Positions 40,287 to 53,497 of a DNA stretch of 53,497 bases are shown here, in pieces; position 1 is the stretch's first letter, and every line of letters begins with the position of its first letter. The stretch covers positions 91,629 through 145,125 of the forward strand of contig NZ_BBPQ01000014.1 of NCBI RefSeq assembly GCF_000787855.1, written 5' to 3'. The translations under genes and the position numbers were made by a program. A model generated the notes under the pieces. The model saw only the letters and a list, made by a program, of their open reading frames with translations. It was not told the DNA's origin and did no database searches. Origin of the DNA: Streptacidiphilus anmyonensis. GTDB taxonomy: Bacteria; Actinomycetota; Actinomycetes; Streptomycetales; Streptomycetaceae.

Positions 40287-40420
40287 GGTTCCTCCTCAGG
40301 ACGCCTACCCCCCACTCAAGCCCCATCGCCAAGCCCCCGCAAACGGGCTCACGGAGATCGCCTGGCCCGCGTTGATCAACCGGAATAGCCTGTTCCCACG
40401 AGCCGGGAAGGGTGAGTGTC

Positions 40421-42796
40421 ATGAACGCCTCCGAGGACCCGCAGCAGGAGCCGTCCCCCCGGGCGGACGTGGAGCCCAGTGTGGGAGCCGTCCCCGCGGA
40501 GCGTCCGGAGTTCCGCGCCTACCACCACCCCGCCGCGGGCTGGGGCGCGGCCAAGAGCGTCACCCGCTTCCTGATGCGCGAGGGCGAGTACGTCGACGGG
40601 CCGCGCGCGATCATGAAGATGAACCATGAGAACGGCGGCTTCGACTGCCCCGGCTGCGCCTGGCCGGACGACATCAAGGGCCTGAAGCTCGACCTCTGCG
40701 AGAACGGCATCAAGCACGTCACCTGGGAGATGACACGCAAGCGCGTGGACCGCGCGTTCTTCGCGGCGCACCCGGTGGCCGAGCTCTCCGAGTGGAGCGA
40801 CTTCGCCCTCGAGGACCAGGGGCGGCTGACCGAGCCGATGGTCTACGACGCGGCCACCGACCACTACGTGCCGATCAGCTGGAAGGACGCCTTCGAACTC
40901 GTCGGCAGCGCGCTGCGCGGGCTGGACGACCCGAACCAGGCGGCCTTCTACACCTCCGGCCGGCTCGGCAACGAGCCGACGTTCCTCTACCAGCTGATGG
41001 CCCGTGAGCTGGGCACCAACAACCTCCCCGACTGCTCCAACATGTGCCACGAGGCCAGCGGCCGGGCCCTTGAGGCCTCCCTCGGCACCGGCAAAGGCAC
41101 TGTGGACCTGAAGGACTGGGAGACCACCGACGCCCTGTTCATCATGGGCGTCAACGCCGCCTCCAACGCCCCGCGGATGCTCACGGCGCTCGCCCAGGCG
41201 TACAAGCGCGGCGCGCAGGTCGTCCACGTCAACCCGCTGGTCGAGGCCGCCGCCCGGCGCACGATCATCCCGCACGACTTCGTGGACATGGCGCTGTTCA
41301 AGTCGACCAGGACCAGCACGCTGAACATCCAGCCGCGCATCGGCGGCGACATGGCGCTGCTGCGCGGGATGGCCAAGGCGATCCTGGAGCAGGCGAAGAC
41401 CGACCCCAAGGCGCTGGACCAGCTCTTCATCGACCGGCACACGCACGGGTTCGAGGAGTACCGCAAGGTCTGCGAGGCGACCTCGTGGGAGGAGCTGGAG
41501 CGCCAGTCCGGCGTCCCACGCAAGGACATCCTCAAGGCCGCCCGGGTCTACCGCGACGCCGACCGCAGCATCGTCAGCTGGTGCCTGGGCGTCACCCAGC
41601 ACGAGCACGGCGTCGACACCGTCCGCGAGATCGTCAACCTGCTGCTCCTGCGCGGCAACCTGGGCCGCGAGGGCGCCGGGCCGTCCCCGGTGCGCGGCCA
41701 CAGCAACGTGCAGGGCAACCGCACCTGCGGCATCGACCACCGTCCGACGACGGAGTTCCTGGAGCGCCTCGGCGAGGTCTGCGGGATCGACCCGCCGCGC
41801 GAGCACGGCAAGGACACCGTGGCGACCATCGAGGCCATGCACCGCGGCGAGCTGAAGGTGTTCGTCGGCATGGGCGGCAACTTCGCGCTCGCCGCGCCCG
41901 ACACGCCGTACACGTACGCCGGGCTGCGCGGCTGCGAGCTGACCGTGCACGTCAGCACCAAGCTGAACCGCAGTCACCTCGTGCACGGACGCCAGGCGTT
42001 GATCCTGCCGTGCCTGGGCCGCACGGAGAGGGACCGGCAGCGCTCGGGCGAGCAGGCCACCTCGGTCGAGGACTCGATGAGCATGGTCCACCTCTCGCGC
42101 GGCATGAAGCACCCCGCCTCGCCGCACCTGCTGTCCGAACCCGCCATCATCGCGGGCATCGCCCGCGCCGCCCTCCCCGGCAGCAGCACCCCCTGGGAGT
42201 GGTACATCGAGGACTACGACCGCATCCGCGACACCATGGCCGAGGTCCTGGACGGCTTCGAGGACTTCAACCGGCGGGTGCGGCTCCCGCTGGGCTTCCG
42301 GATCAAGCAGCCGGCCCGCGAGCTGGTCTTCCTCACCCCGTCCGGCAAGGCCGAGTTCTCCGCCGCCGCGCTGCCGGACGTCGTCCCCGCCCCCGGCACG
42401 CTCGCGCTCGGCACGATGCGCTCGCACGACCAGTGGAACACCACGATCTACTCCGACGACGACCGCTACCGCGGCATCAAGAACCTGCGCACGCTGGTCT
42501 TCATGAACCGCGACGACATGCGCGAACGCGGCATCACCGAGTTCGACCCGGTCGACGTCACCGCCACCGCCCGCGACGGCTCCAGGCGCTCCCTGACCGG
42601 CTACCTCGCCGTCCCCTACGACATCCCGCGCGGCTGCGCGGCGGGCTACATGCCGGAGATGAACGTGCTGTGCGCCATCGGCGACTACAGCACCCAGAGC
42701 GACCAGCCCATCATGAAGCACCTGAAGGTCACGGTGACCCGCTCCGAAGCGATCTCCACCCCGCCGCACGGGGCCGAGCCCGCCCATCTGGCGTAG
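40421..42796 (+). CDS. FdhF/YdeP-type molybdopterin oxidoreductase
   Basis: A 791-residue member of the formate-dehydrogenase-like FdhF/YdeP family. The N-terminal FDCPGCAWPDD (about residue 70-80) is characteristic; unlike classical formate dehydrogenase it has no full four-Cys [4Fe-4S] site. Molybdopterin-binding parts follow: YTSGRLGNEPTFLYQLMARELGTNN, CSNMCHEASGRALEASLGTGKGTVDL, LRGNLGREGAGPSPVRGHSNVQGNRT and the C-terminal dinucleotide-binding NRDDMRERGITEFDPVDV. E. coli YdeP is tied to acid resistance; the electron acceptor is unknown. A GTG at 40412 is an alternative start; ATG 40421 has GGGAAGGG eight bases before it. No partner subunit or accessory gene adjoins. Confidence 0.93.
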   Translation: MNASEDPQQEPSPRADVEPSVGAVPAERPEFRAYHHPAAGWGAAKSVTRFLMREGEYVDGPRAIMKMNHENGGFDCPGCAWPDDIKGLKLDLCENGIKHVTWEMTRKRVDRAFFAAHPVAELSEWSDFALEDQGRLTEPMVYDAATDHYVPISWKDAFELVGSALRGLDDPNQAAFYTSGRLGNEPTFLYQLMARELGTNNLPDCSNMCHEASGRALEASLGTGKGTVDLKDWETTDALFIMGVNAASNAPRMLTALAQAYKRGAQVVHVNPLVEAAARRTIIPHDFVDMALFKSTRTSTLNIQPRIGGDMALLRGMAKAILEQAKTDPKALDQLFIDRHTHGFEEYRKVCEATSWEELERQSGVPRKDILKAARVYRDADRSIVSWCLGVTQHEHGVDTVREIVNLLLLRGNLGREGAGPSPVRGHSNVQGNRTCGIDHRPTTEFLERLGEVCGIDPPREHGKDTVATIEAMHRGELKVFVGMGGNFALAAPDTPYTYAGLRGCELTVHVSTKLNRSHLVHGRQALILPCLGRTERDRQRSGEQATSVEDSMSMVHLSRGMKHPASPHLLSEPAIIAGIARAALPGSSTPWEWYIEDYDRIRDTMAEVLDGFEDFNRRVRLPLGFRIKQPARELVFLTPSGKAEFSAAALPDVVPAPGTLALGTMRSHDQWNTTIYSDDDRYRGIKNLRTLVFMNRDDMRERGITEFDPVDVTATARDGSRRSLTGYLAVPYDIPRGCAAGYMPEMNVLCAIGDYSTQSDQPIMKHLKVTVTRSEAISTPPHGAEPAHLA

Positions 42797-43223: not shown

Positions 43224-45734
43224 TCAGCCCAGGCCCGGCAGGGGGCCGTCGCCGGGCAGCGGTCTGAGGTCCGTCAGCCAGCGGGCGTCGGGGTCGTAGG
43301 CGGCGAAGAACGGACGGCCCACCAGCTCGGGGTCCCGCGCCTGGACGTAGTGGAGCACGAACGCGCGCCGGCCGCCGACCTCGGCCACCCCGTCGACCTG
43401 CACCTTGCCCGGCGTCGCCGACATGATCGGGCCGCGCACCGTCCGGGCCAGCCCGGAGACCTGCGCGTACGCCTCACGGAACAGCTCGTGGGCGCGGGCC
43501 AGCGGCACCGCGAAGTAGTCCTGCGGACCGGTGTCGCGCTCGACGAACATGTAGTACGGCACCGCGCCCTGGGCGACCAGCCGCCGCCACAGCACCGCCC
43601 AGTCCTGCGCCCGGTCGTTCACGCCCCGGATCAGCGGCGCCTGGCAGCGGACCACCGCGCCAGTGCCCTGCGCCCGGCGCAGCGCCCGCACCGCCGCCTC
43701 GGGCTCCAGCTCGCGCGGGTGCGAGTAGTGGCCCATCAGCGCCAGGTTGCGCCCGCTGCCGACCACCCGCTCGAACAGGCGCAGCAGCTCGTCCGCGTCG
43801 GGGTCCGTGAGGAAGCGGTGCGGCCAGTACGACAGCGCCTTGGTGCCGATCCGCACGGACTCCAGATGCGGGATCTCCAGCAGCGGCTCGACGTAGCGGG
43901 CCAGCACGGCACTGCTCATGATCAGCGGGTCGCCGCCGGTGATCAGGACGCTGGTGATCTCCGGATGCGCGCGCACGTAGGAGGTGAGCGCCGCCGCGTC
44001 TCCGCTGGCCATCCGCAGGTCGGGCTCGCCCACGAACTGCGGCCACCGGAAGCAGTACGAGCAGTACGCGTGGCAGGTCTGCCCCTGCCGCGGGAAGAAC
44101 AGCAGCGTCTCGGCGTACTTGTGCTGCATGCCCTCGACCGGTTCGCCGTCCAGCAGCGGGGTGTTGAGGTCCCGCTGGCCGCTCGGGTGCGGGTTCAGCC
44201 GCAGCCGGATCCGGTTCACGTCCGCGCGCAGCCGGTCGGCCGAGGCGCCGTCGCGCAGCATCGAGGCCAGGCGCTCCACGTCCGCGCGCGGCAGCATGTC
44301 CGGCTGGGGGAAGACCAGTCGGTACATCGGATCCTCGGGCGCCGCCTGCCAGTCGATCAGCTCGTCGACGACGTAGGAGTTGGTCCGGAACGGCAGCACC
44401 TCGGCGACGGCCCTGGCCCGGAGCCGGTCGGCCTCGTCCAGGCCGGCGCGCGCGAGGAGCCCGTCGAGGTGGGGGAGGGCCAGAGCCCGGAACACCGGCC
44501 GATGATCACCGTTCTGCACTGCCACGTTCTGCACTGCCACGCACTGAACCTCTGTCGCTCTCCGCCGTGCCGTCCTTACCGGCGCGCGCTCGGCCGACGT
44601 CGTCTCAATCATCGCACGAGGCACGCCTTTGACCCGCACGAACATCTCCGCGTCCGCGCCGTACTTCTCCGTGAACTCGGCGCGCAGCCGCCGGAGCAGG
44701 GCGAGCTCCCCGGGCTCCTCCGGGTCGATCAGCTCCAGTTCGTGGACCTGCTCCGCGCTGCCGTCCACCCGGACCGTCACCGGCCGGTCCCGGTGCCGGG
44801 CGAGCTCCACGACGAGCCGCTGGTCGCTCAGGTACAGCACGCCGTCGTCGTCGACGTACTCCAGCCACATCGGCGTCCCCGGCTCACCGGACTCCGGCTC
44901 GACGAACTGCACGTGACGGGTCAGCACCTCGTTCACGGAGCGGGAGCGGCTCCACAGCTCGGCGAAGCGCTCGGAGACGAAGGAGCCGAGCGGTGTGGTG
45001 ATCCGGACCTCCAGCTGCTGCCCCTCGCCGGAGAGCCGGTCCACCGGGTAGAAGCTCACCATCATCCGCTCCCCGCACCGGTACAGCTGGATGGACGGCG
45101 CGGCGGCGTAGACCCGCACCTGCAACCGGTCCCGGTGCTCCTCCGGGAGCACCGCCTCCAGGCGGCGCAGTTCGCGGAGGTTGCGCATGACCTCGCGGCG
45201 CACGTCCGCGCTGAGCTCGTGCGAGCGCTGCCGGGCCGCCATCGAGTCGGGGTCGAGCAGCATGACGCGGACCGTCGCGCCCCGCCGGATCGCGGTCCGC
45301 GCCGCGTCCGCGAAGCGCGTGGCGCTCGCACCGGACAGCAGGTAGGAGAAGGTGTCCAGGACGCAGACGATGTCGCCGGTCTGCGCCACCTTGTCGCAGA
45401 ACGACGGGTAGTCGAGCCGCAGGTGCTCGCGGACGCGCTCCTCCTCCAGCCGGCTCAGGACCGGCTGGATCACCAGCAGGGTGACCATCGTGGTGAGCAT
45501 CTCCGGCGCCAGGTTCAGCAGCAGGTTCTCGCGGAAGTCCGGCAGTCCCCGCGCGAACCAGATGCACAGCCCCGCCACCACCCCGATCCCGGCGCAGAGC
45601 AGCAGCACACCGCGGCGCACCCCGCTGTCCCCGAACAATCGGCACCCCCGTACCCGGATCCGGAACGCGTTCCTTCCGGTGGAATGGGCGCGTCTGTACG
45701 GACCCTGGTACCCCCGCGGTACGGGGGCATGCAC
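43224..45734 (-). CDS. Membrane module fused to KamA-like radical SAM domain
   Basis: A single 836-residue frame. Residues 40-95 hold two hydrophobic helices (VLLLCAGIGVVAGLCIWFA and MLTTMVTLLVIQPVL). Residues about 105-260 resemble phospholipase-D-like or DUF5919 sensor modules (GDIVCVLDTFSYLL, GATVRVMLLDPDSMAARQRS, ERMMVSFYPVDRL, FVSERFAELWSRS). From about 400 on, it is a lysine 2,3-aminomutase relative: FRTNSYVVDELIDWQ, the radical-SAM cluster CHAYCSYCF (Cys554, 558, 561), SVLITGGDPLIM and NLALMGHYSHPRELEPEA. The linker has a duplicated VAVQN. The GTG start has AAAAGG ahead; an internal ATG (MIETTSAER, near 44610) could start the enzyme alone. Reaction unknown. Confidence 0.85.
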   Translation of the reverse strand: MHAPVPRGYQGPYRRAHSTGRNAFRIRVRGCRLFGDSGVRRGVLLLCAGIGVVAGLCIWFARGLPDFRENLLLNLAPEMLTTMVTLLVIQPVLSRLEEERVREHLRLDYPSFCDKVAQTGDIVCVLDTFSYLLSGASATRFADAARTAIRRGATVRVMLLDPDSMAARQRSHELSADVRREVMRNLRELRRLEAVLPEEHRDRLQVRVYAAAPSIQLYRCGERMMVSFYPVDRLSGEGQQLEVRITTPLGSFVSERFAELWSRSRSVNEVLTRHVQFVEPESGEPGTPMWLEYVDDDGVLYLSDQRLVVELARHRDRPVTVRVDGSAEQVHELELIDPEEPGELALLRRLRAEFTEKYGADAEMFVRVKGVPRAMIETTSAERAPVRTARRRATEVQCVAVQNVAVQNGDHRPVFRALALPHLDGLLARAGLDEADRLRARAVAEVLPFRTNSYVVDELIDWQAAPEDPMYRLVFPQPDMLPRADVERLASMLRDGASADRLRADVNRIRLRLNPHPSGQRDLNTPLLDGEPVEGMQHKYAETLLFFPRQGQTCHAYCSYCFRWPQFVGEPDLRMASGDAAALTSYVRAHPEITSVLITGGDPLIMSSAVLARYVEPLLEIPHLESVRIGTKALSYWPHRFLTDPDADELLRLFERVVGSGRNLALMGHYSHPRELEPEAAVRALRRAQGTGAVVRCQAPLIRGVNDRAQDWAVLWRRLVAQGAVPYYMFVERDTGPQDYFAVPLARAHELFREAYAQVSGLARTVRGPIMSATPGKVQVDGVAEVGGRRAFVLHYVQARDPELVGRPFFAAYDPDARWLTDLRPLPGDGPLPGLG
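44511..44540. repeat. 15-bp tandem duplication inside the fusion gene
   Basis: GTTCTGCACTGCCAC occurs twice without spacer, in frame, giving VAVQN twice in the linker between the membrane module and the radical SAM domain. Confidence 0.85.
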
Positions 45735-45781
45735 GCGTCGCCTTTTGTTGAGGGGGAGTTGAGGATACGGGCGGAACCCGG

Positions 45782-46765
45782 TCAGGCCGTGCGGGCGCCG
45801 GGCTCGGGTTGACTGCCGCTGGTCGAGCCGTGCACCAGGTCCTTCCCGAGGCGGGTCGGGGCGTGGTGGACCGTCTGGCCGTTGCGGACGGTGGCGAGGA
45901 GCCCGGACTCACGAAGGACGGAGGCGTGTCGTGAGGCGGCGGCAGCGGACACCCCGAGGGCGGCCGCGAGTTGTCCGGTGGTCAGGGCCGGTGTCCGCAC
46001 CAGGGCGACCAGCGCCGCCGCCCGTGTCGTCCCGAGGAGCGCCACCAGCGCCGGGGGCGGGGTCTCGAGTGCGACGTCGCGCGTGAGGGGTCCGGCGGCG
46101 ACGGGGTAGCTGACCGTCACCGAGTCCTCCAGCGGATTGAAGGTGATATGGGTGGCCAGGGTCGTGGGCTGGAAGATCAGTGGGCGTCCCTCCAGCGACT
46201 CGACGCATTCGACCTGCGTGTTCAGCCGCAGCTCCCGGCCGTCCCAGCGGATCGAGGGATGCAGGGAGGCCAGCAGGCCGTCGACGCCGCCCATCGCGGC
46301 GCGGACCGCCGCCTCGGCGGAAGCGGTGGCGACGGCCGAGGCGATCCTGCGGCGGTAGGGGTCCAGTGCCGTGACCCGGAAGCCGGCCAGGATGTGGTTC
46401 AGCGTGCTGACCGCGCCCGTGTGGCAGTCGGAGAGCGCGCGCGTGAACGGGGTCAGGGCCCGGGACCGGGCCAGGTCCCGCAGGTGGGCGGTGGCCGGTG
46501 CGGACTCCGGGTCGATCCCCGACGGCGTCGGCTGGACGATCTCGTCGAAGAAGGCCGGCATGTAGAGGTGGGTGTAGAGGTCGAACAGCCGGCTGTGGCT
46601 GGGGTTCCAGTCGCGGGCGACCTCCAGCCGCCAGGACGCCAGCTGCCGGTCGGGGGTCCGGTCGGCCAGGTGCCCAGCGCCCAGCGCGAGTTCGTAGCCG
46701 AAGTCAGGTGCGTCGGCGACCTGTAACCGCTCGAGGTCGTCCGTCGTCAGACCGATCCGTATCAA
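45782..46765 (-). CDS. DUF5937 / ArsR-like winged-helix transcriptional regulator
   Basis: A regulator with a large N-terminal DUF5937-type domain and a C-terminal ArsR winged helix (RTPALTTGQLAAALGVSAAAASRHASVLRESGLLATVRNGQTVHHAPT). The proposed TTG start at 46765 gives LIRIGLTTDDLERLQVADAPDFGYELALGAG, the usual family beginning, and has AGGGA seven bases ahead. The frame is open to 46888 with an ATG at 46825, but that lies within an inverted repeat. About 327 residues. It follows 48 bases upstream of the fusion gene on the same strand; the ligand is unknown. Confidence 0.8.
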   Translation of the reverse strand: MIRIGLTTDDLERLQVADAPDFGYELALGAGHLADRTPDRQLASWRLEVARDWNPSHSRLFDLYTHLYMPAFFDEIVQPTPSGIDPESAPATAHLRDLARSRALTPFTRALSDCHTGAVSTLNHILAGFRVTALDPYRRRIASAVATASAEAAVRAAMGGVDGLLASLHPSIRWDGRELRLNTQVECVESLEGRPLIFQPTTLATHITFNPLEDSVTVSYPVAAGPLTRDVALETPPPALVALLGTTRAAALVALVRTPALTTGQLAAALGVSAAAASRHASVLRESGLLATVRNGQTVHHAPTRLGKDLVHGSTSGSQPEPGARTA

Positions 46766-46815
46766 CCTGGCGTCCCTGGGTCTCGTGTCGGTGGATTGGT
46801 CCCGTTGGTCCCGGA

Positions 46816-46839
46816 GCTTTTGCATGCCCACGCAAAAGC
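46816..46839. promoter_or_regulatory. Inverted repeat upstream of the ArsR-like gene
   Basis: GCTTTTGC (46816-46823) and GCAAAAGC (46832-46839) are exact complements around 8 bases, about 50 bases before the proposed start; an A/T-rich island in GC-rich DNA and a likely autoregulatory operator. Confidence 0.5.
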
Positions 46840-46956
46840 CTAGCCGCCGGAACGGCGACCGTCGATCGTGTATCCACAGCTGCGTCACAGACGACCGCGG
46901 GCCACGGGGGACCCGCGCTGTGGCCGCGCGCGATGTATGGGAAACCGGGGGGAACC

Positions 46957-47241
46957 ATGCGTCAATTGATCAGTCACACGTGTCCGAACTGCGCTTCGCC
47001 GAGCCCGGAGGGCGGTCGGGGCGCAGGCGTCCTCCAACGTCCGTCCGCTGTGGGGCCCAGTGATCTGGAGCGGGAGTTGCTCCGCCTTCTTGCCCAGGGA
47101 CTGACCGATGCCACCGTCGCCAAGCGGCTCAACGTGTCGCTGCGCACCGAACGCCGCATGGTCGCCGACCTGATGCGCCGTCTCGGGGCGAGCGGCCGGT
47201 TCGAGGCCGGGGTCAAGGCCGCTCGCCGGAGGTGGATCTGA
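46957..47241 (+). CDS. Small LuxR-type HTH protein
   Basis: A 94-residue protein that is almost only a LuxR/GerE helix-turn-helix: SDLERELLRLLAQGLTDATVAKRLNVSLRTERRMVADLMRRLGASGRFEAGVKAARR. The Cys pair near the N-terminus (CPNC at residues 9-12) has only one partner pair site and is probably not a zinc finger. ATG start with GGGGGGAA seven bases ahead. There is no receiver or sensor domain, so it may be a stand-alone DNA-binding regulator. Convergent with the giant secreted protein gene; a strong terminator lies between. Confidence 0.85.
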   Translation: MRQLISHTCPNCASPSPEGGRGAGVLQRPSAVGPSDLERELLRLLAQGLTDATVAKRLNVSLRTERRMVADLMRRLGASGRFEAGVKAARRRWI

Positions 47242-47314: not shown

Positions 47315-50300
47315 TCAGGTTCCCTGGACGCCGATCTGACGCAGTTGCAGATAGTGGTCACCGTACTGGTCCGCACCCAGGACCGTCGCGTTGACCTTGA
47401 TGTATCGCGCTCCCGTCGTGTTGAAGCGGAACGGCTGGGGTGCGTCACCCGGCCTGGGGTAGTTCGACTCGTTGGCCACGGTGGTCCAGTTCGTCCCGTC
47501 CACGCTCACCTGGATGGTGAAGGTGACCGGGAAGCCCGCACCGATGGTGTTCGTGGTGTCGTCGCGCGGATAGAGGTCGACTTCGCCGATCTGGTGCGTG
47601 GTGCCGAGGTCCACCTGGGCCCACTCGTTCGCGCCGGCGGCGGCGTCCTTCTGGCTGGAGTACCCGCTCACCGTCGGGATGCCCCGGTAGACGCCGTCGG
47701 TCAGGTGTGTTGCCTCCCAGCCGGTGAGTTGGCTGGACGCGGTCGCGGCCGCGCCGACCGCCAGGTTGGTGCCCAGCGGGGGAGTCCAGGCCTGGTTGGC
47801 GTTGCCCAGGCAGTCGTAGATCTGCAGTTGGGTGCCGTTGTTCAACGAGCCGCCCGGGTCGTCCAGGCAGCGCCCGGAGTTGGGGTTGAGCAGATGGACG
47901 TGGCCGCTGCCGTCGGACTGGGCGACCCACTGCTGGTTGACCCCGCCTTGGCAGTCCCACAACTCCACCAGCGTGCCGTTGGCGGTGGCGCTGGACCCTC
48001 CCGTGATGTCCAGGCACTTGGTGCCGTTGGAGGAGGTCAGCGAGAGGGACCCGGTGGGGCTGAGCGTCCAGTTCTGTGCGGATCCGCCGTTGCAGTCCCA
48101 CTCGTTGACGTGGGTGCCGTTGGTCTGGTTGGCGGTGTAGTCGTCGATGCACTTGCCGGTCAGCGTCGGGCTGTAGAACGACCCGCTCGTCCTGGTGGAG
48201 GTGAACGCGCTGTTCTGGAAGAGCCAGGAGACCTGGTCGGGCGTCAGGGTCTGCTGGTAGACCCGGGCGTCCGCGATGCTGCCGTTGAACCGGTACGCGA
48301 GCGTCCCGGCGCGGTCGGACGCGCCGATCACCAGCGCGCTGCCGGTCTTGCCGGCGCTGTTCCACGCGGAGTGGTTCGTCCCCGTGCCGGCCAGCTGGCC
48401 GTTCACGTAGAGGCGGATGGTGCCGGTGGTCGCGTCGAACGTGCCGACCAGGTGGGTCCAGGTGTCGAGCGACACGTCCGAGGCAGGGGCCGCGGCCCAG
48501 GTCCAACCGGGGCCCGGGTTGTCGCTGGTGGGCATGACCATCGCCCAGGAGTGCTGCGGCGGGTCGTAGTCCAGGTAGAACGACTCCATGTTGGTCCCGG
48601 CCTGCGCCAGGACGAAGCGGTAGTCGCTGGTGTCCCGGAGGTTGACCCACGCGGCGGCGGAGAACGACTTCGAGGTGTCGACCGTCGTCGCCGCGGTGAT
48701 CTGGCCGGTGCCGTCGAAGGCCGCCGACCCGCCCGGGTTCCAGGTCACGCCGGAGGCGCTGAGCGTGCCGGGGTCACCGCCGGGCGTGCCGGTGTCGGCG
48801 GCGGTGGTTCCGCTGCCGTCGGACAGCTTCCACTGACTGACCGCGCCCCCGGTCACCACGACCGTGCTCGACGTGGTGGCGGTGACGCCGCCGGCGTCGG
48901 TGGCGGTGACCTTGACCTGGTACGTGCCGGCCGTGGCGTACGTGTGGCTCGCGGAAGCGGTGGCCTGCGGCCCGAGCACGGTGCCGTCGCCGAAGTCGAA
49001 CGTGTAGCCGGTGACGGCCGTGGTGCCGGGGTAGGAGGCGGTGGCGTCCGCCGTGACCGGCACACCGGTCAGCCCGGTGGCCGGGATGTTCAGCCCGAGG
49101 CTCGGGCCGTTTCCGGCGGTCGGGACGAGGTTCAGCGTGTCGACGCCGATGACGTACCGGTTGCCGACGCTCGCCGCGTTGGTCCCGGTCATGGTGAACG
49201 TGAAGCTGTGCATGCCGGCGCTGAGCGTCACCGTCCCGAAGTGGACCGGGGCGATGGACACGCCCGACGCCTGGTAGGCGTCGTAGGTGAGGGGCAGGTT
49301 CGTCGGCTGCGATGAGCCGGAGTCGACCGTGACCGCCACCTGCCCGCGGTCGTTGGTCTTGGTCAGCGCCGCGGTGACGGAGTACGTCCCCGCGTTGGCC
49401 ACGAAGTAGTTCATCGTGACCGACTGCCCCTGGGCGGTGCCGGGGAAGTAGAGCTGCTCGCCGTTGGACAGCGAGATGCCGCAGCAGTTGCCCTGGACCT
49501 GCGTCGCCGGACCGTTGACGCTTCCCCAGGTGGACTCGGCCTCGACGCTCTGAGTCTGGCCGGGACCGGTGGGCAGGACGAAGCGCTGCGCGGCGTCGGG
49601 GTTGCTCGCGGTGTCCCAGCACGGCCACAGCTGGAACGGGTTGAGGTTGCTGTTGCTCTCGCCGGTGTCGTCCAGGCACATGCCCGCGGCCGGGTTGTAG
49701 ATCCAGTAGTGGCCGGCGGCCGAGGGGGAGGGGATGATGCGCCAGGTCTGGAACGCGGCCCTGCCCGTCAGGTCGCAGCCCTGGAGCGTGACCTTGGTGG
49801 CCTGGACCAGCGAGCCGCTGGTGTCCATGCAGGTGTTCTGCTGGCCGTTGCCGCCCATGAACCGGATGGTTCCGTCGGAGCCGAACGCCCACTGCTGGGG
49901 GCCGGTTCCGTTGCAGTCGTAGAGCTCGATGGTGGTGCCGTTGGCCGTGCTGCCGTACTCGTCGTCCACGCACTTCTGACCCGAGGGGCCGCCCGTGACG
50001 TCGCTGACGATCTGGCCGTTGATGCCGGTGGTGATGGGCGTGCCCTGGAGGTTGCTCACGCCGGCGGTGGCGCCCCAGTTGATCGCGGTGGCGGTGGTCT
50101 GGCCCTGCGAGGCCAGGTTGTTCCCGATCGGTCCGAGCAGGACGGAGACCTGTCCGTCGGGGCTCATGGTCCACAGGTCGGGGTTGCCGTCGCCGTTGAG
50201 GTCGCCGGCGGTGTTCACCCAGGTGTAGGGGGCGAACTGGCCGGTGGCGCCCAGCTGCTGCTTGTTGCTGAGGTCACCGAGGCCGGCGCCGAGGGTGCCG

Positions 50301-53300
50301 GTGTCCGTGTGGTTGGTGAACTGCCACAGGGTGCCGGCCGGGTCCTCCGCCCACAGGTCGGGCATCCCTCCCGAACCACCCGCGTGGCCTGCGGCGTTGC
50401 CCGGGGCCATGACCCGCATCCGGGACCAGTCCCAACCCGGCTGGGAGACCGAGATCAGAACGGGGTTGGTCAGCTGGCCGGTGCCGGCCGGTGAGAACAG
50501 CCAGACCCGGGCAGTGCCCTGGTAGTTCTCGACGGTCACCAGGTTGGTCTTGCACGCGGTGGTGGGAGCGCTGATGGTGCAGCCGCCGCGAACGGGCCCG
50601 AGCGCGATGATCTGCTGGACGGAGTTCCAGGTCGGATCGTAGCCCTGGCAGCCGCCGTTGAGGGCGCCAGGGGTACAGGTCGGCCGGGTGACCACAGCCT
50701 GCTGGGTCTGGGCGAAGGCGTTCAAGGTCGTCGGCGGGGTGTAGCCGGGCTGGGTGCTGGCCGACGCGGTCTGGGAGTTGAAGTAGTAGGAGAGATGCCC
50801 GTTGCCGGAGCTGTCCTTGTCGTACGCGAACAGGTCGTCGGTGGGCTGGACGCGTTCGGCGCCGCGGTGCGTGATCAGCGCGGTCGACCAGGAGGTGCCG
50901 TTGGGGGCGGATGCGGCCGGCGCCGCCTGGACGGCGTTGACCGAACCCGCCGGATCCAGGTTCGTCGGGTAGATGATCAGGTTGCCGTTCTTGTCGGCGC
51001 CCATCAGGTTCGGGGTGCCGTCACCGCTGACGTTGCCGAACGACACCGGCTGGAACGCCTGCGCCAGGAAGAAGTCGTAACGCGCGTACGGCGAGACGTT
51101 CCCGGCCTTGTCCACCGCGGAGACGTACAGGTAGTTGGTCCCCCAGTGCTCGCCGTCGCCCGCACCGGACGCCAGGGTGATCGGCACGGTGGCGTTGGTG
51201 GTGCCCAGGCCGCTCGTGCCGGAGGCGCTGGCGTTGACGGTGCCGCAGGCGGCGTTCGCGATGCCGGTGCAGTTCCCCGCGCCCTCGTTCGTGCTGGTGG
51301 TGTTGAGCGCCCAGTCGAAGTGGTCGATCCCGGTGGTCGGCGCGGTGGCGTTGACCGTGATGGTGCCGCCCGTGCCCACAGTCGGGTACGAGGCCAACTG
51401 CTGGCCCGTGGCCGGGAAGGTCGACTGGGAGACGGTGGGCTGGTGGGGCGGGGTGAGCGCGGCGGTGAACCAGCACTGTGGGCTGGACGGCGCCGGGTAG
51501 TTGTTGCCGTTGTTGTTCCAGGCGTTGTACAGGTCCTGGCCGTTCGTGTTCACGAACGTGCCGTTGGTCATCCACTCGTCGTCGAGAGCCTGGCCCCACA
51601 GCGCGTAGGTGTGGCCGTCCTGCAAGGACATCGGCGTGCCGTTCCAGCCGTTGGAAGCGGTGGGGCTGATGGTGGTCAGCGCCTGGCCGGTCGCGGTGGT
51701 CGGCGCGGTGCTGTAGCCGTAGCCGCCGTTCTCGGTCTGGCTCGGGTAGGTGGCGCCGGGTGGGTAGTCGTCCACGTTCAGCTGCCAGGACACCACACGG
51801 CTGTCCAGATCGTTGATCGGCATGTTCAGGCCGACGGATGCCGCCTGAACGGGCAGGTACCCGGCGGTGGCCTGGGTGTTACCGCACGGGTTGGTGTGCT
51901 GTCCGTGGTTGTTGACCGGGGCGCTGTTCAGCGTCGGCGTCCCGAGCCACGGCTCGGAGACGAAGTTGACGGTGACGTTGGGGTTGTTGCTGCCCGCGTT
52001 CTGCACGAAGTACGAGCCGTAGTTGTTCGTCGTCGAGCCCTCGTTCGCGGCACGCAGGCCGATGGTGTAGGTCCCGCCACCGGCGTTGTAGACGTCCCGC
52101 ACCTGCTGGGTGATGTTGACGCTGAACCAGTTGTTCTTGCAGTTGGTCGACCCGCCGAAGGTGGTGATCGGGTTGGTGAAGTCGCTGCCGGAGGTCGGCC
52201 ACAGGTTGGTGTCGCTGCCGCCGTTCTGGTTCGACCAGTTGGAGCCGGTGTTGAACTGGTTCGCCCGCCACGCCTGGGTCGTGGGGCAGGTGGCGCTCTG
52301 GGAGATCAGGTTCAGGAAGGCCCCGGTGACGAAGGTGACGTTCTGGCTCTGGTCACCTGGGTGCGCGCTGTAGTCGCTCGGCTTGGGCAGGTTGAACGCC
52401 GAGAACGACATCAACGAGCGCACCAGGGTGCCCGCGGAGTTGCCGACCCGGACGGCCGAGGTGTCATAGCCGCCGTACGGCCACGGGTTGCCGTCGTAGA
52501 CGGAGTTGCCGTTGGACCAGAGCTCCAGCCAGTTCTGCGGGTTCTCGACCCACTGCGGGTCGATGCGGACCGGCCAGACCGTGGACGGCGAGCTCAGCAG
52601 GGACTGGCTCGGCGTCACCGTCACGGACCCGTGCGACACGGTGGTGGGCATCTTCGCCACGTGCGGGCTCGCGGCCGACCCCGAGGCCGACCCTGCCGCC
52701 GACCCTGCGGCCTGCGCATTCTTGCCCGTCGTGGCCCCGGGCGCCGGTTGCGGCGCCGAGTCCCACATGGTGGGAGCGGGACCGCCGAAGACCTGGTTCC
52801 CCTTGGCGTCCTTGGCTGTCACCCCGCCGTCCGCGGTGGTGCCGATCGTCAGCCCGGTGCCGGTGACGCCGAGGCGGATGCTCCTCAGCGCCGGGTTGGC
52901 GGCGGCCTTGGCGTCGTGGACCACGAACACGTCCTGCACGCCGGACGGCAGCGCCACCAACTGCAGGTCCACGCCCGGATACACGTCGCGATAGGTCGCG
53001 GTGGCACCGGACAGGGTCGGGGCGGGCAGCGCGCCACCGGGCCAGGTGAAGGTCAGGGCGTGCCCCGCGCCGTCGTCCACCACGGCCAGCGGGCCGGTCC
53101 CGCCGCCGGAGAGCTTCACCGACGCCAGGGTGACCTTGGAGCTGACGCTTCCGTCCGCGTTCTTCACCAGGGTGGTGTCGATGGGCTTCCAGGAGCCGCC
53201 CACCTTCGCCCGCTGGGGGTTGAGGAACTCCTGGGCGGTGAAGTGCCCGGCGGGGTTGGCCGTCAGGGTGGTGTAGGGGTTCGTCGCGACGTCCACCTGC

Positions 53301-53497
53301 ACCGGCTTGTGGGTCTTCTTGGCCTGCGTCATGGCTGCGGCCATGCTCTTGAGCAGCGGGTTCGTACTGGCCTGCGGCGCGGTGCCGCCCGGCGTCCCCC
53401 GCGTGCCGGAATGCGACGCCGAGGGCTTGGCGGGCGCCTTGGACGTCCCGGCCGCGCGCGAGGGCGATGCTGTGGCGGTTGTGGGGGTGCCCGCCCG
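47315..53497 (-). CDS. Giant secreted multi-domain carbohydrate-binding protein (partial, 5' end outside window)
   Basis: Open to the right edge: at least 2060 residues, with no start needed inside the window. Reading from the N-terminal side: a Ser/Pro/Thr/Ala-rich stretch; a DNRLRE/surface-like module at about 51950-52600 (VWPVRIDPQW, NITQQVRDVYNAG, YGSYFVQNAG); FG-GAP/VCBS-like blades (SGDGTPNLMGADKNGN, GDLNGDGNPDLW); a ricin-B-type lectin at about 49570-49985 (CVDDEYGS, LYDCNGTGPQQW); a CBM35/6-like domain at 49110-49545; a PKD domain (FDFGDGT); a LamG-like domain at 48190-48840; a second ricin-B lectin at 47770-48170; and a terminal F5/8 type C (CBM32) domain at 47315-47760. Extracellular glycan binding is likely; no catalytic domain is seen. 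Confidence 0.88.
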   Translation of the reverse strand, partial: RAGTPTTATASPSRAAGTSKAPAKPSASHSGTRGTPGGTAPQASTNPLLKSMAAAMTQAKKTHKPVQVDVATNPYTTLTANPAGHFTAQEFLNPQRAKVGGSWKPIDTTLVKNADGSVSSKVTLASVKLSGGGTGPLAVVDDGAGHALTFTWPGGALPAPTLSGATATYRDVYPGVDLQLVALPSGVQDVFVVHDAKAAANPALRSIRLGVTGTGLTIGTTADGGVTAKDAKGNQVFGGPAPTMWDSAPQPAPGATTGKNAQAAGSAAGSASGSAASPHVAKMPTTVSHGSVTVTPSQSLLSSPSTVWPVRIDPQWVENPQNWLELWSNGNSVYDGNPWPYGGYDTSAVRVGNSAGTLVRSLMSFSAFNLPKPSDYSAHPGDQSQNVTFVTGAFLNLISQSATCPTTQAWRANQFNTGSNWSNQNGGSDTNLWPTSGSDFTNPITTFGGSTNCKNNWFSVNITQQVRDVYNAGGGTYTIGLRAANEGSTTNNYGSYFVQNAGSNNPNVTVNFVSEPWLGTPTLNSAPVNNHGQHTNPCGNTQATAGYLPVQAASVGLNMPINDLDSRVVSWQLNVDDYPPGATYPSQTENGGYGYSTAPTTATGQALTTISPTASNGWNGTPMSLQDGHTYALWGQALDDEWMTNGTFVNTNGQDLYNAWNNNGNNYPAPSSPQCWFTAALTPPHQPTVSQSTFPATGQQLASYPTVGTGGTITVNATAPTTGIDHFDWALNTTSTNEGAGNCTGIANAACGTVNASASGTSGLGTTNATVPITLASGAGDGEHWGTNYLYVSAVDKAGNVSPYARYDFFLAQAFQPVSFGNVSGDGTPNLMGADKNGNLIIYPTNLDPAGSVNAVQAAPAASAPNGTSWSTALITHRGAERVQPTDDLFAYDKDSSGNGHLSYYFNSQTASASTQPGYTPPTTLNAFAQTQQAVVTRPTCTPGALNGGCQGYDPTWNSVQQIIALGPVRGGCTISAPTTACKTNLVTVENYQGTARVWLFSPAGTGQLTNPVLISVSQPGWDWSRMRVMAPGNAAGHAGGSGGMPDLWAEDPAGTLWQFTNHTDTGTLGAGLGDLSNKQQLGATGQFAPYTWVNTAGDLNGDGNPDLWTMSPDGQVSVLLGPIGNNLASQGQTTATAINWGATAGVSNLQGTPITTGINGQIVSDVTGGPSGQKCVDDEYGSTANGTTIELYDCNGTGPQQWAFGSDGTIRFMGGNGQQNTCMDTSGSLVQATKVTLQGCDLTGRAAFQTWRIIPSPSAAGHYWIYNPAAGMCLDDTGESNSNLNPFQLWPCWDTASNPDAAQRFVLPTGPGQTQSVEAESTWGSVNGPATQVQGNCCGISLSNGEQLYFPGTAQGQSVTMNYFVANAGTYSVTAALTKTNDRGQVAVTVDSGSSQPTNLPLTYDAYQASGVSIAPVHFGTVTLSAGMHSFTFTMTGTNAASVGNRYVIGVDTLNLVPTAGNGPSLGLNIPATGLTGVPVTADATASYPGTTAVTGYTFDFGDGTVLGPQATASASHTYATAGTYQVKVTATDAGGVTATTSSTVVVTGGAVSQWKLSDGSGTTAADTGTPGGDPGTLSASGVTWNPGGSAAFDGTGQITAATTVDTSKSFSAAAWVNLRDTSDYRFVLAQAGTNMESFYLDYDPPQHSWAMVMPTSDNPGPGWTWAAAPASDVSLDTWTHLVGTFDATTGTIRLYVNGQLAGTGTNHSAWNSAGKTGSALVIGASDRAGTLAYRFNGSIADARVYQQTLTPDQVSWLFQNSAFTSTRTSGSFYSPTLTGKCIDDYTANQTNGTHVNEWDCNGGSAQNWTLSPTGSLSLTSSNGTKCLDITGGSSATANGTLVELWDCQGGVNQQWVAQSDGSGHVHLLNPNSGRCLDDPGGSLNNGTQLQIYDCLGNANQAWTPPLGTNLAVGAAATASSQLTGWEATHLTDGVYRGIPTVSGYSSQKDAAAGANEWAQVDLGTTHQIGEVDLYPRDDTTNTIGAGFPVTFTIQVSVDGTNWTTVANESNYPRPGDAPQPFRFNTTGARYIKVNATVLGADQYGDHYLQLRQIGVQGT

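What the first reader, a model, noticed from the sequence alone, without database searches (positions are those of the whole stretch)
43224..45734. Single-frame fusion of a two-helix membrane/PLD-like module with a KamA-like radical SAM enzyme
KamA-type aminomutases are normally soluble stand-alone enzymes. Here one frame joins a membrane-anchored module, of a type otherwise seen in sensor or stress proteins, to a full radical-SAM domain with CxxxCxxC. That would tether a beta-amino-acid-forming or related radical enzyme to the membrane, under an adjacent ArsR-like regulator. The duplicated 15-bp segment in the linker suggests recent change at the joint.
Basis: partly seen in the sequence, partly recalled or inferred. 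Interest (0 to 1): 0.7.

Follow-up and report, generated by a model that had tools for sequence, protein, structure and literature searches.

The report
Frameshift joins membrane sensor and aminomutase
In this soil bacterium a small deletion has run two neighbouring genes, a membrane sensor-like protein and a radical enzyme, into one reading frame, whereas the relatives examined keep them as two separate but closely linked genes of unknown joint function.

Summary
The frame is real: 836 codons are open at 43224-45734 (-), likely start TTG 45638 (804 aa). It is not a conserved fusion. All 23 other paired loci examined keep two genes, as do 15 of 15 other adjacent pairs in a 297-genome family sample (7 genomes shared). 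Against its two nearest relatives the window lacks one base (about 44580-44573) in the 3' tail of gene 1. The old tail and stop survive out of frame (44508-44506), and the KamA gene keeps its own AGAGG/GTG start (44540). Gene 1 is a two-helix membrane protein with a PLD-like fold (HKD motif in 0 of 39) and a probable split barrel. The same module ends AfsR-like SARP-STAND regulators in another actinobacterial family. Gene 2 has the lysine 2,3-aminomutase fold, CxxxCxxC and the presumed PLP lysine, but Arg (38 of 38) where the lysine enzyme has Asp293, so lysine is an unlikely substrate. The ArsR-like neighbour is not kept with the pair in congeners. The lasting novelty is the conserved, overlapping or abutting gene pair; the fusion is a single-genome event. 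Substrate, sensing and coupling are inferred. Assembly error is not excluded.

The parts
43224..45734 (-). Open frame as reported (836 codons); likely translated part 43224-45638 (804 aa) from TTG 45638
   Evidence: start by comparison with relatives
45639..45765 (-). Leader of gene 1, similar in the two nearest relatives; similarity fades further upstream, at the end of the ArsR-like gene
   Evidence: alignment of 3 sequences
45441..45626 (-). Two predicted membrane helices (model residues 5-29 and 35-66); the second is less hydrophobic
44919..45443 (-). PLD-like domain without HKD motif
44616..44927 (-). Probable split-barrel domain (HutZ type fold)
44573..44580 (-). Site of the one-base deletion, relative to the two nearest relatives, that shifts gene 1 into the KamA frame
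44549..44553 (-). AGAGG, ribosome-binding-site-like, 8 nt before GTG 44540; AGAGG kept in L001-L006 (6 of the 8 congeneric junctions compared, window included), not in L007 and L008
44511..44540 (-). Tandem 15-bp repeat (two copies); the first copy begins with the KamA GTG start codon
44506..44508 (-). Relic TGA: the relatives' stop of gene 1, now out of frame; their tail is readable in that other frame with the repeat inside it
43224..44540 (-). KamA-fold radical SAM gene; CxxxCxxC 44075-44052, Arg335 at 43538-43536 (LAM Asp293 position), Lys379 at 43406-43404 (presumed PLP lysine)
45782..46888 (-). ArsR/MarR-like HTH protein, a neighbour not kept with the pair in congeners
40412..42796 (+). 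FdhF/YdeP-family molybdopterin oxidoreductase, convergent neighbour; seen next to the pair in 2 of 7 other congeneric loci (L114 has only 680 nt downstream)

Best explanation
Two genes that normally overlap or abut were merged in this one genome. A one-base deletion in the variable 3' tail of gene 1 (two-helix membrane protein with degenerate PLD-like and probable split-barrel domains) moved its reading into the frame of gene 2 (LAM-fold radical SAM/PLP enzyme). That frame was already open over the overlap, so the old stop is bypassed. The KamA gene keeps its own ribosome-binding-site-like sequence and GTG, so free enzyme is probably still made, alongside a membrane-tethered fusion (inferred). 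The ancestral arrangement suggests translational coupling of a membrane sensor or scaffold with a PLP-dependent radical 2,3-aminomutase. Its pocket has Arg instead of a lysine-binding Asp, so an acidic amino acid such as glutamate or aspartate is the likelier substrate (inferred). Shown: frames, indel, conservation of the pair, predicted folds, residues. Inferred: coupling, products, substrate, sensing.
Against: No reads were available, so an assembly error in the draft (153 contigs) is not excluded; if so, the window simply has two genes. No expression data: internal initiation is not shown. dN/dS was measured over the whole divergence and says little about the time since the fusion. KamA was found without a detected adjacent gene 1 in 72 of 80 loci (at least 4 of these have under 1.6 kb upstream), so its chemistry does not need the membrane partner. 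AGAGG is absent in the two more distant congeners L007 and L008. The acidic-substrate inference rests on one residue and on homology. The split-barrel match is one region of a single AF2 model.
Confidence: 0.72

Rival explanations
1. The fusion is an assembly or sequencing error and the genome really has two overlapping genes like its relatives.
For: Single draft genome of 153 contigs; every other paired locus examined has two genes.
Against: The site is not a long homopolymer (GGTAAGGACGG) and shows neighbouring substitutions relative to relatives. The region around it otherwise differs by whole-codon insertions (+15, +3), as expected of real divergence.
Confidence: 0.2
2. A functional membrane-tethered enzyme: the fusion has been selected and the 804-aa protein is the working form.
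For: Frame open throughout; both halves show dN/dS well below 1; the partners are already neighbours in relatives, so joining them could be tolerated or useful.
Against: Found in one genome only; KamA start and RBS-like sequence retained; a one-base deletion explains it fully; among the 120 best of 3888 matches to the nearly full-length query none covered more than 57% of it.
Confidence: 0.15
3. The enzyme is an ordinary lysine 2,3-aminomutase or an EpmB-like EF-P modifier.
For: LAM fold and presumed PLP lysine; sources name such proteins 'L-lysine 2,3-aminomutase' or 'KamA family protein'.
Against: 103 of 525 bits for AblA and 102 of 369 for EpmB. Asp293 replaced by Arg, and S, I or V at the Asp330 position, in 38 of 38, while E. 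coli EpmB keeps acids at both. Own genome has no over-cut-off EpmA/GenX (best 188 of 286.9 bits) or AblB (best 30 of 205).
Confidence: 0.1
4. The gene-1 protein supplies a cofactor or electrons to the radical enzyme through its split barrel rather than sensing.
Against: The same module ends SARP-STAND regulators in genomes without a KamA match at E <= 1e-100, which fits sensing better; no cofactor-site test was made.
Confidence: 0.12

Closest known systems
Lysine 2,3-aminomutase (KamA/AblA; PDB 2a5h)
   Different: Asp293 replaced by Arg; no acid at the Asp330 position; far below the TIGR03820 cut-off
Glutamate 2,3-aminomutase (TIGR04368)
   Same: Same fold family; there too the lysine-binding aspartates are exchanged, for Lys and Asn (PMC3965090, passages); that the Lys sits at the Asp293 position is recalled
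   Different: 93 bits against a cut-off of 650; Arg, not Lys, and S/I/V, not Asn, at the two positions
PLD-fold proteins incl. TrmB-type effector domains (TrmBL2 5bqt, FAM83, Nuc 1byr)
   Different: No HxKx4D motif in any of 39 members; two N-terminal membrane helices
AfsR-like SARP-STAND regulators (Trans_reg_C, BTAD, NB-ARC, TPR)
   Same: In actinobacterial family f20 they end in the same module (32% over 267 aa, E 1e-22 for L127)
   Different: There it is fused to a DNA-binding STAND protein, not to membrane helices or next to KamA

Membership tests
KamA family radical SAM protein (TIGR00238) | Curated score cut-off 199.2 bits | tested here: not met
   135.2 bits
KamA family radical SAM protein (TIGR00238) | CxxxCxxC for the 4Fe-4S cluster | tested here: met
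   38 of 38 rows of A4
KamA family radical SAM protein (TIGR00238) | LAM-type fold | tested here: met
KamA family radical SAM protein (TIGR00238) | PLP-binding lysine in the C-terminal segment | tested here: met
   Lys379 in 38 of 38; aligned with the EpmB lysine in A5, which aligns with LAM Lys337. PLP binding itself not tested
Lysine 2,3-aminomutase (TIGR03820) | Two aspartates (293 and 330) that bind the lysine side chain (numbers recalled; the aspartates and their replacement in the glutamate enzyme: PMC3965090 passages) | tested here: not met
   Arg at the first in 38 of 38; S 30, I 4, V 4 at the second
Lysine 2,3-aminomutase (TIGR03820) | Curated cut-off 525.4 bits | tested here: not met
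   103.3 bits
Glutamate 2,3-aminomutase (TIGR04368) | Curated cut-off 650 bits | tested here: not met
   93.2 bits
Glutamate 2,3-aminomutase (TIGR04368) | Activity on glutamate | not testable with these tools
   Needs enzyme assay
EpmB (TIGR03821) | Curated cut-off 369.3 bits | tested here: not met
   102 bits
PLD superfamily enzyme | HKD motif HxKx4D | tested here: not met
   0 of 39 rows of A3
PLD superfamily enzyme | PLD fold | tested here: met
DUF5919 (PF19319) | Curated cut-off 23.5 bits | tested here: not met
   19.1 bits for the window protein; 34 of 39 members incl. the window match at E <= 0.1
FMN-binding split barrel | Split-barrel fold of residues 238-341 | tested here: inconclusive

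The most novel reading that the evidence does not exclude
A widespread, uncharacterised clade of LAM-fold radical SAM/PLP enzymes isomerises an acidic amino acid (glutamate or aspartate), and in several actinobacterial lineages it is coupled to a membrane sensor whose degenerate PLD/split-barrel module is shared with AfsR-type SARP-STAND regulators. The window shows a natural tethering of the two that still makes the free enzyme from an internal start.
Probability: 0.22. Interest if true: 0.6.

Novelty: new variant of a known kind. Interest (0 to 1): 0.36.

Why it matters
The fusion is probably a recent accident, but it points to a conserved pair: 16 of 18 full-length gene-1 matches in the family sample sit directly before this enzyme. 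That makes the membrane partner a handle on an enzyme clade found from Actinomycetes to Myxococcus and Planctomycetota, whose substrate is not established in anything seen here, and on a sensor-like module that also ends large SARP-type regulators.

Tried and rejected
Conserved fusion: rejected. The 15-bp repeat as the joining event: rejected, because a similar repeat is in L005 where the genes are separate. ArsR-like control of the unit: not supported; no match at E <= 1e-5 in the fetched 14-19 kb regions L112-L118, and upstream similarity fades at the end of that gene. Told against this: one weak match to the ArsR-like protein (31% over its last 171 residues, E 4.6e-9) lies about 1.4 kb from KamA in L123 (G016), a genome without a gene-1 match; a shared HTH is enough to explain it. 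Lysine aminomutase and EpmB readings: see Membership tests. Defence-system link: 0 PADLOC matches for 4 proteins at E <= 0.01. Neighbours of KamA at large: across the 80 loci, gene 1 adjoins in 8; the argS- and plsX-like neighbours in Streptosporangiales run divergently and look like lineage synteny (names given by eye from translations).

Papers: searches used the term '... 2 3-aminomutase', which seems unable to match the printed comma (one search finds the phrase in PMC9105233, which one search missed), so their zeros mean little. Usable searches: 9 of 9 listed; 15 of 15; DUF5919, 0 papers; 10 of 162 listed; 15 of 60; 10 of 12; 8 of 39. Titles and abstract starts in those listings describe neither this gene pair nor this enzyme clade; unlisted papers and papers outside the library were not seen. 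Passages read: PMC9105233, PMC3965090, PMC7966384 (cystobactamid aminomutase domain without the cluster motif, not related). The glutamate 2,3-aminomutase paper is not held.

Full-length homologue search: only proteins of about 460-1463 aa qualify, only 8000 candidates were scored and only the best 120 of 3888 were seen, so a distant fusion is not excluded. Six gene-1 hits under 100 bits, from 6 genomes of which G117 also has a full-length hit, left out of the 18.

Full report
Observation. The frame 43224-45734 (-) is open over 836 codons; the genome search reads it as one 894-aa open frame. Relatives' starts align at TTG 45638, preceded by GGGGG, so the likely product is 804 aa.

Two genes elsewhere. 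Of 41 genomes searched with the whole protein, the window's own included, 29 matched. In congeners the two halves hit as separate, adjacent matches. Across 24 paired loci, the 23 other than the window all have a stop that ends gene 1. In L112, L113 and L115 the stop lies inside the KamA gene (17 nt after the first base of its GTG in L112 and L113, by coordinates); in the others it lies before or about at the KamA start. In a 297-genome family sample, 23 genomes matched gene 1 at E <= 1e-20, 18 of them over 460 bits. KamA matched in 45. Comparing the two tables by eye, 16 of the 18 have KamA directly downstream; G138 has it elsewhere and G186 has none at 1e-60. Only G000 has one open frame of equal length for both (894 aa); in the other 15 the frames differ. 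The two sets share 7 congeners. Co-occurrence gives Fisher p 9e-15, or 6e-14 without the window genome, not corrected for kinship.

What made the joint. Aligning eight junctions, the window differs from its nearest relatives G006 and G008 by one missing base near 44580-44573, a 15-nt tandem repeat and a 3-nt insertion. The last two keep frame; the first does not. In another frame the window still reads the relatives' gene-1 tail, with the repeat inside it, and its TGA at 44508-44506. In those relatives the KamA frame is already open for 17-18 codons upstream of its homology, so a shift is enough to join the genes. A similar tandem repeat occurs in L005, where the genes are separate.

Internal start. 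AGAGG precedes the KamA GTG in six of the eight congeneric junctions compared, the window included (L001-L006; five with GACAGAGG, L003 with CAAAGAGG), and is absent in L007 and L008. In the window it lies 8 nt before GTG 44540. Independent translation of the enzyme is therefore likely (inference). Against G006 and G008, dN/dS is about 0.16-0.22 for gene 1 and 0.11 for KamA: neither half looks decayed, although this covers the whole divergence, not only the time since fusion.

Surroundings. Gene 1 adjoins KamA in 8 of these 80: two Streptacidiphilus, five Streptomyces, one Catellatospora; some contigs are cut short upstream. The ArsR-like gene has no match in the fetched regions of seven congeneric loci; the FdhF/YdeP gene is seen in two of the seven. 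About 125 bp before gene 1 are alike in three genomes, and similarity fades upstream.

Conclusion. The most likely working state is free enzyme plus, perhaps, a tethered form. The pair and the Arg-pocket enzyme deserve the attention, not the fusion itself. An assembly error remains possible.

Noticed in passing
L127, L128, L130, L131 (family f20 genomes): The PLD-like module forms the C-terminus of AfsR-like SARP-STAND regulators (Pfam scanned for L127, L130, L131); in L131 only the PLD part matches and the frame ends after it.
   Followed up: partly
window 47315-53344 (-): 2009-aa protein with PKD, LamG-like, ricin-type lectin and F5/8 type C domains; a counterpart (88% over the first 1500 aa) lies upstream of the pair in G006 (L113).
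   Followed up: partly
window 40412-42796 (+): FdhF/YdeP-family molybdopterin oxidoreductase (869 bits to TIGR01701), convergent with the fused frame and kept next to the pair in the two nearest relatives.
   Followed up: partly
window 46498-47241 (+): Frame with a LuxR-like HTH motif at its end, seen by eye only.
   Followed up: no
L028, L029: A second type of KamA-like protein (about 480 aa) in other Actinomycetes that keeps Asp at the LAM Asp293 position; 158 bits to AblA for L028, below its cut-off.
   Followed up: partly
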